This document shows, in pieces, positions 5,417-46,759 of a stretch of DNA of 64,000 bases. Every line of letters begins with the position of its first letter. Position 1 is the stretch's first letter. The stretch spans positions 1,301,141 to 1,365,140 of the forward strand of contig OX638324.1 of the NCBI GenBank assembly GCA_951812825.1, in the 5' to 3' direction. Made by a program: the position numbers and the translations under genes. Origin of the DNA: an uncultured Dehalococcoidia bacterium. GTDB lineage: Bacteria; Chloroflexota; Dehalococcoidia; Lucifugimonadales; GCA-2712585. The notes beneath the pieces were generated by a model. That model did no database searches. It had not been told where the DNA came from and saw only the letters and a program-made list of their open reading frames with translations.

Positions 5417-6550
5417 GTGGACTTAGCGTTAAGCGAAATTCAACAGATGTTGAAGACCAGCGCCCGGGAGGTGCTGGCCCGGGAATTCCCCTTCGAGGCG
5501 GTGCGGTCGATGGAGGAGGACGCGCGGGGGTATACTCCGGAACTTTGGCGGTCCATGTCGGAACTGGGATGGCTGGGACTGGTGGTGCCCGAAGAGTACG
5601 GCGGCGCGGAAGGTTCCTTCCTGGATCTGGGCATGCTGCTGGAGGAGATGGGTCGCGCGCTGACCCCGGGCCCGTTCTTTTCGACGGTGGCGCTGGGCGC
5701 GCTGACGGTGATGGACGCTGGGGACGAGGCGATGCAGTCGAAGCTGCTGTCCGGAATTGCGAACGGCGAGACGATTATGACAATGGCCGTCACGGAGGGG
5801 TCCGGCGGCTTCGGCCCGGAGGAAGTTCGGCTTCGCGCGGAGCGTCAGGGGAGGGGATTCGCGCTTTCCGGTCGGAAGCTTTTCGTGCCCGATGCTCACG
5901 TCGCCGACTACGTCATCGTAGCGGCGCGGACGTCGGAGGGTGCAGACGCGACGGAAGGGATAACGCTGTTCGTCGTGCCGATGAAGGAAAAAGGGATTAC
6001 CGTCACGCCCCATAGGACGATGGCGTTGGAGAAGCAGTCGCGGCTGAAGTTCAATGAGGTACGGCTGCCGGCAAATTCGGCGCTGGGGACGGTGGACGAG
6101 GGGTGGCCCGCGCTACAGCGGGCGTTGCAGCGGGCGGCGACGGCGAAGGGGCTGGAGATGGTGGGAGGCGCCGAGGCGGTGCTGGACATGACGTTGGAGT
6201 ATCTGAAAGACCGGGTGCAATTCGGACGTCCGGTGGGGACGTTTCAGGCGTTGCAGCACCACTGCGCCAACATGGCCATCGACGTTGAGGGGAGCAGGTA
6301 CGCAGTGTACCAGGCGGCGTACCGGATTTCGGAGGGGCTGCCGGCCAGCCGGGAGGTGTCGGTGGCGAAGGCGTGGGTCAGCGACGCTTACATGCGGGTG
6401 TGCGCCACGGCGGTGCAGTGTCACGGGGCGGTGGGGTTCACGGCGGAGCACAACCTGCAACTGTTCACCCGCCGGGCGCGAGTGCAGGAGCAGCTGTACG
6501 GGGACAGCGGGTTCCACCGTCGGCGGCTGGCGGCAGGGTTGAGGGGGTAG
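5417..6550 (+). CDS. Acyl-CoA dehydrogenase, partner subunit
   Basis: A 377-residue protein of the same family as its upstream neighbour but clearly divergent. It keeps LGWLGLVVPEEYGG in the N-terminal domain and QFGRPVGTFQALQHHCANM in the C-terminal helical domain. It lacks a canonical SGSD flavin motif (TEGSGGFG instead) and lacks the YEGTSE catalytic segment, ending in EQLYGDSGFHRRRLAAGLRG. Proteins of this kind are the second subunit of alpha2beta2 dehydrogenases such as those for steroid side chains in actinobacteria. The start is a GTG. It is followed by a hairpin that may terminate the pair's transcript. Confidence 0.8.
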   Translation: MDLALSEIQQMLKTSAREVLAREFPFEAVRSMEEDARGYTPELWRSMSELGWLGLVVPEEYGGAEGSFLDLGMLLEEMGRALTPGPFFSTVALGALTVMDAGDEAMQSKLLSGIANGETIMTMAVTEGSGGFGPEEVRLRAERQGRGFALSGRKLFVPDAHVADYVIVAARTSEGADATEGITLFVVPMKEKGITVTPHRTMALEKQSRLKFNEVRLPANSALGTVDEGWPALQRALQRAATAKGLEMVGGAEAVLDMTLEYLKDRVQFGRPVGTFQALQHHCANMAIDVEGSRYAVYQAAYRISEGLPASREVSVAKAWVSDAYMRVCATAVQCHGAVGFTAEHNLQLFTRRARVQEQLYGDSGFHRRRLAAGLRG

Positions 6551-6597
6551 GGGGCGTTTTCCACAAATCATTATTCAGCCCGCTTTCTTCCTTTCTC

Positions 6598-6630
6598 AAA
6601 CAGGACATTGGCATGGACAATGTCCTGTTT
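6598..6630 (+). terminator. Candidate intrinsic terminator
   Basis: A perfect 13-base inverted repeat with arms at 6598-6610 and 6618-6630 (core CAGGACATTG / CAATGTCCTG) and a 7-base loop ends in a run of T. It lies 48 bases after the stop of the second acyl-CoA dehydrogenase gene. The GGACATTG core recurs just downstream, so it could also have a regulatory role. Confidence 0.55.
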
Positions 6631-6659
6631 TCATTTGGCGTGAGTCGTGCCTGAATTTG

Positions 6660-6698
6660 TTGGACATTTCAATGGACATTGTCCAATGCGATGTCCAA
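6660..6698. promoter_or_regulatory. Nested palindromes, candidate operator
   Basis: TTGGACAT at 6660-6667 pairs with ATGTCCAA at 6691-6698, and between them lies the palindrome TGGACA-T-TGTCCA at 6673-6685. Together with the upstream hairpin, the GGACATT/AATGTCC half-site is repeated at least five times in 100 bases, upstream of the methylmalonyl-CoA mutase gene. Such clustering suggests a regulator binding site, though a decayed repeat is possible. Confidence 0.4.
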
Positions 6699-6721
6699 AT
6701 TTTCGTGGTGCGGGGAGGAGG

Positions 6722-6752
6722 GTGGATTCCGGCTCGTAGGCCGGAATGACGG
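6722..6752. repeat. Dispersed repeat, family B
   Basis: A GGATTCCGGC ... GCCGGAATGACGG inverted repeat. The same core (GGATTCCGG/CCGGAATGACG) recurs at 10380-10411, 47459-47485 and 55034-55061, in either orientation and always between genes. Confidence 0.7.
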
Positions 6753-6826
6753 GAGAAGGGAATTGCGGTTGAGCGCATTTGTGGCGGGGGTTAGAATTGG
6801 GGGTACCCCATGGGAGGAGTTTTCCC

Positions 6827-8488
6827 TTGGCCAGCAGCGACAAGGAGCAGTGGCGTAGGCGCACCCTGGACCCGGCCTTGAAGGCTCGGGCGCAGCGTCG
6901 GGACGAATTCGTCACGGATTCGGGGTTGGAGGTGGACACGGCCTATGCCGACGATGATCTCTCCGACGGCGGATTCGACCATAAGCAGGACTTGGGGAAC
7001 CCCGGCGAGTATCCCTTCACTCGCGGCGTTCAACCCACCATGTACCGGGGGCGTCTGTGGACGATGCGGCAGTACTCCGGCTACGCCACGGCGGAGGAAT
7101 CGAACCGGCGCTACCGGTACCTGCTGGAGCAGGGGCAGACGGGGCTTTCCGTCGCCTTCGACCTGCCCACCCAGATAGGCTACGACTCGGACCACCCTCT
7201 GGCCCGGGGCGAGGTGGGAAAGGTGGGGGTGCCCATCTGCCACCTGGAGGACATGGAGACGCTGCTGGAGGGCATCCCCCTCGACAAGGTCAGCACCTCC
7301 ATGACCATCAACGCCACGGCGTCGGTGCTGCTGTGTCTCTATGCGGCGGTGGCGAAAAAGCGGGGTGTTCCTCTATCCAAGATAAGCGGCACCCTCCAGA
7401 ACGACATTCTGAAGGAGTACATCGCCCGCGGCACCTACATCTACCCGCCCAAGCCATCCATGAGGCTGGTGGTGGACGTTTTCAAGTACTGCTCGGCCCA
7501 CATTCCGCGGTGGAACACCATCAGCGTAAGCGGCTACCACATGCGGGAGGCGGGGGCGACGGCGGTGCAGGAGCTGGCTTTCACCTTCGCCAACGCCATT
7601 GAGTACGTTCAGTCGGCTGTGGACGCTGGGTTGGACGTGGACGAGTTCGCCGGGCGCGTGTCGTTCTTCTTCGTGTCGCACAACAACATCTTCGAGGAAG
7701 CGGCCAAGTTCAGAGCGGCCCGTCGAATGTGGGCGAAGATAATGAAAGAACGGTTCCGCGCGCAGAATCCGCGCTCCATGCGGCTGCGGTTCCACACCCA
7801 GACGGCGGGGGTGACGCTGACGGCGCAGCAGCCCGACAACAACGTGGTGCGGACTACCCTGCAGGCGTTGGCGGCAGTGCTGGGTGGCACCCAGTCGTTG
7901 CACGTGAACTCGAGGGACGAGGCCCTTTCGCTACCTTCCGAGGAGTCGGTGCAGATATCCCTTCGCACCCAGCAGATACTCGCCCACGAGACGGGCATTG
8001 CCGACGTGGTGGACCCCCTCGGGGGCTCCTACTACGTGGAAGACCTGACCCGGCGGCTGGAGGAGGGGGCGTGGGAGTACATCCGGCGGATAGACGACAT
8101 GGGAGGGGCTGTGGACTCGCTGGAGCAGGGATTCCAGATGGGGGAAATTCACCAGGCGGCGTTCCAGCACCAGATGGAAGTGGAGTCGGGCCGGCGCACC
8201 ATCGTAGGAGTGAACAAGTACAAATCGGAGGATGCGCCCACGGGTGGGCTGCTGAAGGTGGACGAGGAGGCGGCCCGCCAGCAGACAGCGCGGCTGGAAC
8301 GGGTGCGGGGAGAGCGGGACGGGGCGGCTGCTTCGGCGGCGCTGGCGCGGCTGGAGGAAGTGGCCCGCTCCGACGAGAACACGGTGGAAGCCATCCTGGA
8401 GTGCGTCGAAAACTACTGCACCCTGGGGGAGATATGCGACGTTTTCCGTGGGGTGTTTGGGGAGCAGCGGGAGTTGGCGGGGCTGTAG
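6827..8488 (+). CDS. mcmA1: Methylmalonyl-CoA mutase, catalytic (large) subunit without B12 domain
   Basis: A 553-residue protein covering the TIM-barrel substrate domain of B12-dependent acyl-CoA mutases and ending where the cobalamin domain would begin. Signatures include [20 protein letters not shown] (with the Tyr typical of methylmalonyl-CoA rather than isobutyryl-CoA mutases), [31 protein letters not shown] and [10 protein letters not shown]. It interconverts (R)-methylmalonyl-CoA and succinyl-CoA together with the separate B12-binding subunit encoded at 11011. The TTG at 6827 was preferred over an earlier TTG at 6779 because a strong GGGAGGAG lies 7 bases upstream. Confidence 0.9.
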
Positions 8489-8644: not shown

Positions 8645-8977
8645 TTGGCAATGCTGGATCAGGGCAGGCTGCGCAACGCCGCAGAAAAGGCCTGGTGCGC
8701 CACGAAGCGGGCCACCGACGCGCTGATTCTGGCTCGCACCGGGGAGGAGCCGCGGACCTCAGGCCAGACCATGCGGATGCTCCGGCGGCTGCGAAGGCAG
8801 GACCCTTCGCTTGAACCGTTACGTGCACGGTACGCGATTCGACAATCCTTCCTGCACGGCGCATGTTTCTATGACGGGATTCTGGAGCCGGCAGACGACA
8901 TCATCGCCGATGTGCGAGAGACCAATGAGTACATCCGGGACGCAGAATCGATGTCGTCCGGCTGGAGCCAAGACTGA
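8645..8977 (+). CDS. HEPN/PaREP1-like small helical protein
   Basis: About 110 residues, largely helical, with the sequence RLRNAAEKAWCATKRATDALIL typical of HEPN-fold (PaREP1-like) proteins related to the two genes at 38746 and 39157. The start is uncertain: TTG at 8645 is the first canonical codon, but the similar segment begins about ten residues earlier in an open frame without ATG, GTG or TTG, so the N-terminus may be damaged or use a rare codon. Function unknown; it interrupts the methylmalonyl-CoA gene group. Confidence 0.5.
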   Translation: MAMLDQGRLRNAAEKAWCATKRATDALILARTGEEPRTSGQTMRMLRRLRRQDPSLEPLRARYAIRQSFLHGACFYDGILEPADDIIADVRETNEYIRDAESMSSGWSQD

Positions 8978-46411: not shown

Positions 46412-46759
46412 ATGAGCGACCACGGTTGCATTTTCTGCGCCATGTCCAGGGGCGACATGGAGGTGGACTTCCTATACCTCGACCAGCAGCTAATGGTGAT
46501 TCGGGACATCAATCCCCGGGCACCGACCCACCTGCTGATAATCCCGCGACGGCACGTGAAGGGTCTGACCTACGCCGCCGGTCGCACCTCCGCCACCCTT
46601 GGCCAGATGTTTGTCATCGCCGAGGAGATGGCCCGCCGGGAGGGCGTCACCGTCAGCGGCTACCGGCTCATACTCAACCAGGGCCCGGACTCCGGCCAGG
46701 AGCTGGAACACGTGCACATGCACCTGCTCGCCGGCAGGGACATGTCCGGGTCGATATAG
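46412..46759 (+). CDS. HIT-family nucleotide hydrolase/transferase
   Basis: A 115-residue histidine-triad protein: CIFCAMSRG at the N-terminus, INPRAPTHLLIIPRRHVKG, and the catalytic triad EHVHMHLLAG. It would hydrolyse purine nucleoside phosphoramidates or related nucleotides. A strong GGGAGGATG ribosome site precedes the ATG. Confidence 0.92.
   Translation: MSDHGCIFCAMSRGDMEVDFLYLDQQLMVIRDINPRAPTHLLIIPRRHVKGLTYAAGRTSATLGQMFVIAEEMARREGVTVSGYRLILNQGPDSGQELEHVHMHLLAGRDMSGSI

What the first reader, a model, noticed from the sequence alone, without database searches (positions are those of the whole stretch)
6598..6698. Cluster of GGACATTG palindromes upstream of methylmalonyl-CoA mutase
Five half-sites in 100 bases form a 13-base hairpin, a 6-1-6 palindrome and an outer pair of 8-base arms. 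Density and symmetry exceed what one expects by chance and suggest an operator array or an attenuator.
Basis: seen in the sequence. Interest (0 to 1): 0.5.

Follow-up and report, generated by a model that had tools for sequence, protein, structure and literature searches.

The report
Orphaned switch of a lost Fic gene
The cluster of mirrored repeats is most likely the leftover on/off switch of a Fic gene (a family of enzymes that tag other proteins) that this bacterium no longer has; relatives that still have the gene carry the same switch in front of it.

Summary
The palindrome cluster is real: seven perfect GGACA/TGTCC boxes at 6603-6696, in 12/6-bp phase. It is single-copy in the genome and absent before the mutase gene in 29 relatives' loci, so it is neither a dispersed repeat nor a mutase operator. 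A profile built from the promoters of six Fic genes in other genomes of the order (window left out) hits it full length, on the minus strand, at E = 8e-16. One clade of Fic proteins has such arrays before 24 of 24 genes found in Chloroflexota genomes, against 1 of 12 more distant Fic genes tested. The arrays bracket the promoter: a distal operator over the -35, the -10 twelve nt beyond it, a proximal operator before the start codon. In the window the boxes are intact, the -10 position reads CACGAC, and no Fic gene of this clade was found in the genome. Seven of 13 order genomes with an array are orphans like this; at one operon a genus shows empty, array-fic-array and solo-array states. Best reading: a relic autorepressor operator, pointing away from the mutase. 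Published precedent: Yersinia CccR. Binding is inferred, not shown.

The parts
6662..6696 (-). Distal operator, 35 bp: GGACA-7-GGACA-1-TGTCC-7-TGTCC (boxes at 0, 12, 18, 30); its inner part is TGGACAATGTCCA
   Evidence: Same four-box layout in fic promoters of G088, G009 and G095, and in G089 with one box changed; model hit
6667..6672 (-). -35-like hexamer TTGAAA in the distal operator (5 of 6 to TTGACA)
   Evidence: same register as TTGGCA in G229
6644..6649 (-). -10 position, CACGAC (2 of 6 to TATAAT): presumed dead; 17-nt spacer to the -35
   Evidence: the six fic-linked arrays read TATAAT, TACAAT (three), TATGAT and TACCGT at this register
6603..6625 (-). Proximal operator, 23 bp: GGACATTGTCCATGCCAATGTCC
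   Evidence: Counterpart sits just before the start codon of fic in G229
6598..6630 (.).
6551..6597 (.). 47-nt junction between the ACAD2 stop codon and the array, where the fic start would be; a GGAAG ribosome-site-like stretch remains (by eye), no fic codons recognised
   Evidence: tblastn of the Fic protein on the window: best E 0.51
5417..6550 (+). Acyl-CoA dehydrogenase (ACAD2), convergent with the lost promoter
   Evidence: Pfam; in 5 of 5 family relatives that have it, it is followed by another gene (HIT-like, by recall)
6827..8488 (+). Methylmalonyl-CoA mutase large subunit (TTG start, by position of the ribosome site)
   Evidence: Pfam PF01642

Best explanation
The cluster is the complete operator-promoter region of a Fic-family gene that this genome has lost. 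In the source family a Fic protein (predicted AMP-transferase, 374-398 aa, N-terminal inhibitory motif, probable C-terminal helix-turn-helix) is transcribed from a promoter bracketed by two operators made of NGACA half-sites in 12/6-bp phase. The distal operator covers the -35; the -10 lies 12 nt beyond its last box in the five best-aligned cases; the proximal operator lies just before the start codon, usually about 59 bp further on. The Fic protein is inferred to bind these boxes through its C-terminal domain and repress its own gene; two operators on one promoter suggest cooperative or bridging binding. In the window the array is read leftwards, towards acyl-CoA dehydrogenase; the fic gene is gone, the -10 has decayed, and the array lies at a synteny breakpoint. 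SHOWN by computation: homology of the array to fic promoters, its orientation, its layout, no detectable gene of the clade. INFERRED: binding, repression, loss by rearrangement or deletion.
For: A profile of six fic promoters, window excluded, hits 6697-6602 minus strand over positions 2-98 of 99, E = 8e-16, the best hit of the 64 kb; in the whole genome E = 1.5e-14, the only other hit being the element's own reverse reading. Ungapped identity to the G229 fic promoter is 73/97, against 52 for the wrong strand. The two halves are 59 apart in G191, G198, G229, G173, G174 and the window. 24 of 24 genes of this Fic clade (10 in 247 order genomes; 14 in 400 phylum genomes) have at least 2 phased box pairs, more than any of 500 shuffles each; 1 of 12 more distant Fic genes does. 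The commonest first base of the box (G/T/C) follows the residue before RD in the putative recognition helix (small/RY/Q) in 23 of 24. All 24 have the Fic motif and the inhibitory T-x-x-x-E-G motif. No clade member was found in G000: best Fic is 28% identical. -10 match to TATAAT: fic-linked 6,5,5,5,3,5 against orphan or secondary 2,4,2,3,6,4,3,0,2, one-sided p = 0.015. Precedent: CccR (PMC9755527, passages read).
Against: Nobody has shown, in what I saw, that this Fic clade binds DNA; its C-terminal HTH is seen only by weak Pfam matches (E 0.013-0.2 in some of 10 members), and that domain matched no solved structure (three chance-level hits). The covariation is partly phylogeny: only 2-3 independent pairs per contrast (p >= 0.25), the residue and its classes were picked after looking, and in a blind scan it ranks 3rd of 376 columns, behind two outside the HTH. 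All seven boxes are intact although gene and promoter are gone, which is odd for an old relic: loss was recent, or something keeps the boxes. In G088 the halves are 80 apart, G088 and G009 have poor -35s, and spacings differ in several TGACA/CGACA arrays. One orphan (G167) has a perfect TATAAT. The genome is 95.65% complete by estimate, so a missing gene is not certain.
Confidence: 0.82

Rival explanations
1. The array was kept after the loss of fic because its perfect 13-bp hairpin (6598-6630, followed by TTTTCATTT) and the second stem now serve as transcription terminators between acyl-CoA dehydrogenase and mutase.
For: Strong stems (z = -5.5). The scan calls 6673-6697 terminator-like on the + strand. 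The arms extend perfectly beyond the boxes (AAACA/TGTTT). Boxes are intact.
Against: The scan does not call the 13-bp hairpin; it found 2 sites in 6400-7000 against 0.8 +/- 0.9 in shuffles. The sequence is explained box by box by fic promoters, where it lies upstream of the gene.
Confidence: 0.12
2. The array is a working operator for the mutase (or a divergent unit), bound by another regulator of this genome.
For: It lies about 130-230 bp upstream of the mutase start; boxes are intact. The genome has two other single GGACAWTGTCC palindromes, one just before a gene start.
Against: None of 29 relatives' mutase loci has more than one GGACAT/ATGTCC. The promoter layout reads the other way. ACAD2-mutase adjacency was seen in no relative examined. 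A dispersed repeat lies between the array and the mutase.
Confidence: 0.05
3. The array is a scar of a mobile unit: array-fic-array inserts between genes and is lost by recombination between its two flanking arrays, leaving a solo array, as solo LTRs are left by retrotransposons.
For: At one ABC-transporter operon, G198 and G191 have array-fic-array, G194 a solo array with left half like array 1 and right half like array 2, and 11 other orthologous junctions have a short gap or overlap, no array and no fic. Orphan genomes (7) are as common as fic-linked ones (6). G191 and G198 Fic are 90% identical while their ATPases are 73% over the part available.
Against: G229, G230, G088 and G009 show only one array in stretches of 10-19 kb; I saw no transposase or target duplication, but did not search for one. 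The second array may instead be an operator for the ATPase gene. The hybrid nature of the G194 array is by eye. In the window there is one array and a synteny breakpoint, no flank comparison.
Confidence: 0.2
4. Dispersed palindromic repeat (REP or MITE) of no regulatory meaning.
For: Two inverted-repeat units; orphan copies in several genomes.
Against: One array per genome in 11 of 13 genomes with hits, two in G191 and G198; promoter features in fixed register; 24 of 24 linkage to one gene clade.
Confidence: 0.03

Closest known systems
CccR of Yersinia pseudotuberculosis and its operator (PMC9755527, passages read)
   Same: Class II Fic protein with C-terminal HTH; inverted half-sites near -35 and -10 of its own promoter; represses itself (shown there by lacZ fusion, footprint, ITC).
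   Different: CccR half-site is AGATAATCAT with a 26-bp spacer, one pair. Here the half-sites are NGACA, 4-9 per promoter, phased by 12/6 bp, in two operators; and the window copy has no gene.
CbFic2 of Coxiella burnetii and SoFic (PMC10628234, passages read)
   Same: Fic core plus C-terminal wHTH; DNA binding shown for CbFic2.
   Different: CbFic2 was tested with random DNA; no operator array is described in the passages read, and DNA binding of SoFic is said there to be undemonstrated.
Operators of type II toxin-antitoxin genes such as Phd-Doc (recalled; PMC13034048 seen in a search listing only)
   Same: Palindromes over the promoter of a Fic/Doc toxin, autorepression.
   Different: There the antitoxin binds; here the Fic protein itself is the only candidate seen.

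Membership tests
Operator-promoter array of the Chloroflexota NGACA-box Fic clade | Phased NGACA/TGTCN boxes in two operators, about 59 bp apart | tested here: met
Operator-promoter array of the Chloroflexota NGACA-box Fic clade | -35 in the distal operator, -10 12 nt beyond its last box | tested here: inconclusive
   -35 TTGAAA present; -10 CACGAC, 2 of 6
Operator-promoter array of the Chloroflexota NGACA-box Fic clade | Followed by a Fic gene of the clade | tested here: not met
   none in the window or genome; hence called an orphan
CccR-type self-repressing Fic protein (for the relatives' genes) | Fic motif and N-terminal inhibitory motif | tested here: met
   24 of 24 proteins
CccR-type self-repressing Fic protein (for the relatives' genes) | C-terminal HTH | tested here: inconclusive
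   weak Pfam matches only
CccR-type self-repressing Fic protein (for the relatives' genes) | Binds and represses its own promoter | not testable with these tools
   needs the bench
CccR operator itself | AGATAATCAT-N26-ATGATAATCT | tested here: not met
   sequence read
Mutase operator | Conserved before the mutase gene in relatives | tested here: not met
   0 of 29 with more than one GGACAT/ATGTCC
REP/MITE | Multiple copies in the genome | tested here: not met
Intrinsic terminator | GC-rich stem followed by a T run | tested here: inconclusive

The most novel reading that the evidence does not exclude
A Fic enzyme gene in Chloroflexota moves and is lost as a unit flanked by its own operator arrays, leaving solo arrays that stay intact at old sites; the window element is one such scar. 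The base read by the array changes with one residue of the enzyme's HTH, so the enzyme and its array evolve as a private lock and key.
Probability: 0.2. Interest if true: 0.75.

Novelty: new variant of a known kind. Interest (0 to 1): 0.55.

Why it matters
Only one self-regulating Fic protein with a mapped operator turned up in the papers searched here. This gives a family of 24 genes with a readable half-site code, natural switches of that code, and natural 'promoter without gene' states, which makes the question of what C-terminal HTH domains of Fic enzymes do directly testable. For the window it removes a false lead (mutase regulation) and shows how a lost regulatory enzyme can be recognised from its switch alone.

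Tried and rejected
Rejected: mutase operator; dispersed repeat; Rfam family (two chance-level lncRNA matches); integron attC site (a GTTGGAC-like motif is present but in the wrong orientation; by eye, motif recalled); DNA-uptake-type repeat (too rare). BLAST of the element in 60 relatives found only itself, so the family became visible only through a gapped box pattern.

Corrected on the way: one search read the left flank as upstream for all mutase loci, although loci of this tool are not turned; the counts used here are, which turns them (26 of 29 with none, 3 with one; two loci have under 300 bases upstream).

Led nowhere: the plasmid and phage records shown hold only distant Fic relatives (24-31% identity); viral contigs 24-36%. 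A general test for repeated 5-mers before 19 other Fic genes gave 2 of 19 at p < 0.02, so 'every Fic clade has its own array' is not supported by that test.

Selection told: the 24 Fic genes are the matches above a gap in identity (45% to 33%; 44% to 33%). The 12 distant controls are a subset of the distant Fic loci fetched, chosen where a start could be placed; the one positive (G011) has three GGACA boxes 12 bp apart. The window-free profile and model R1 use only the six GGACA-type promoters, so TGACA and CGACA arrays are not found by them. One search used the stricter filters that the tool applies over 40 genomes; among its orphans G024 is weak (20.7 bits). Of the 14 ATPase loci read are empty, G198 and G194 bear arrays, and G195 has another, unidentified insert; G191 was read from L210. 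G197 was misplaced and re-read (empty).

Papers: five searches for Fic operators, autoregulation or Chloroflexi Fic listed no title or abstract on these arrays; the library lacks most subscription journals. Passages were read of two papers, the rest seen as listings.

Full report
Observation. Within each half they are spaced by 12 or 6 bases, and the halves start 59 bases apart. Phased box pairs: 9, against at most 1 in 2000 shuffles; no other place in the window exceeds 1.

What it is not. The genome has no second copy of the array. Of 29 mutase loci from relatives, 26 have no GGACAT/ATGTCC in the up to 600 bases before the mutase and 3 have one (which corrects). No relative's mutase locus has an ACAD2 ortholog beside it. 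ACAD2 is followed by a HIT-like gene (named by recall) in 5 of 5 family relatives that have it (the sixth, G005, 70% complete, has no close match); here the best match to that gene lies 40 kb away at 46412. So ACAD2-mutase adjacency was seen only in this genome, and the array lies at a synteny breakpoint.

How the family was found. BLAST with the element found only itself in 60 genomes. A gapped pattern, GGACAT-N1-14-GGACAWTGTCC, in 250 genomes of the order hit 4, the window's own included; in G229 two units stood 59 bases apart, as in the window. Allowing 2 mismatches (14 of 247 genomes; several of the other hits look like coding sequence by eye) gave more, and in G229, G230, G191 and G198 the units stood directly before a gene whose product is a Fic protein (Pfam PF02661 for three of them tested).

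The Fic clade. Searching that protein in 247 order genomes gave 10 close members (45-100% identity) and then a gap to 33%. All 10 have boxes around their promoters. In 400 genomes of the phylum 14 more members were found (44-54%), again all with boxes. By a fixed score, 24 of 24 have more phased pairs than any of 500 shuffles each; of 12 distant Fic genes 1 meets the same bar. Layout in the GGACA members: distal operator over the -35, -10 twelve nt after the last distal box (TATAAT, TACAAT, TATGAT in the five best cases; TACCGT in G088), proximal operator before the start codon.

The window array belongs to it. A profile of six fic promoters without the window hits window 6697-6602 on the minus strand end to end at E = 8e-16. 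Its nearest relative among those compared is the G229 fic promoter, 73 of 97 positions. It keeps the -35 (TTGAAA) but its -10 position reads CACGAC. No Fic gene of the clade was found in the genome (best 28%).

Orphans are common. A model of the array found 13 of 247 order genomes with arrays: 6 beside fic, 7 without (G000, G169, G194, G173, G174, G167, G024, neighbours); none of the 7 has a clade member. The -10 positions of orphan or secondary arrays match TATAAT less well (one-sided p = 0.015, 6 against 9 arrays), G167 being an exception. At one ABC-transporter operon, G198 and G191 carry array-fic-array, G194 a single array, G195 another insert, and 11 other orthologous junctions are empty. 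This shows gain and loss of fic, and in G194 an array without the gene at the same place.

Who binds. The clade's proteins have the Fic motif and an N-terminal inhibitory motif (24 of 24) and a C-terminal domain with weak HTH matches. Profile matches to solved structures are Fic proteins. Published precedent is CccR, which represses its own promoter through inverted half-sites near -35 and -10 (PMC9755527, passages). The commonest first base of the box varies among members and follows the residue before RD in the putative recognition helix in 23 of 24. On a tree from the first 280 residues the box base changes at least 5 times and the residue class at least 5 times, but independent pairs are too few for significance, and in a blind scan this column ranks 3rd of 376, columns outside the HTH ranking 1st and 2nd. 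So this is suggestive only.

Verdict. It is an orphan operator-promoter of a lost Fic gene. What keeps seven boxes intact without the gene is open: recent loss is the simplest answer; use as a terminator or a mobile-unit scar are rivals.

Noticed in passing
window 6705-6752: Dispersed repeat (GGATTCCGGC..GCCGGAATGACGGG) between the array and the mutase; 17 further matching places in the genome.
   Followed up: partly
L160, L168, L169, L171, L173, L175 (viral contigs): GGACA direct repeats 11-12 bp apart ending in the palindrome GGACAWTGTCC, inside phage genes that look like replisome organisers (by recall), next to CTCTATCTCT-type repeats; perhaps phage origin iterons, unrelated to Fic.
   Followed up: partly
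L194 (G011) upstream of a distant Fic gene: Three GGACA boxes exactly 12 bp apart before a Fic gene only 31% identical to the clade.
   Followed up: no
L190, L192, L195, L196, L198, L199: Another Fic group with many GAAATGA-like repeats before the start (by eye); only 2 of 19 distant Fic upstreams pass the repeat test.
   Followed up: partly
G010:C6:97220-97544 (L208): Broken remnant of a Fic gene of the clade (47-50% identity, several stops); no array found in the 5 kb around it.
   Followed up: partly
L244 (G195), between the permease and the ATPase gene: A different, unidentified insert at the same operon junction that receives array-fic-array in G198 and G191; the junction may be an insertion hot spot.
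   Followed up: no
L001 1477-1511: A lone TGGACATTGTCC palindrome just before an iron-sulfur reductase-like gene in the same genome.
   Followed up: no
window 8645-8974: Small PaREP1/PaREP8-family ORF between the mutase and the next acyl-CoA dehydrogenase.
   Followed up: no
L180 1340-1417 (G229), L181 1348-1425 (G230): A tRNA-Glu gene lies under 100 bases beyond the 3' end of the fic gene in both species.
   Followed up: partly
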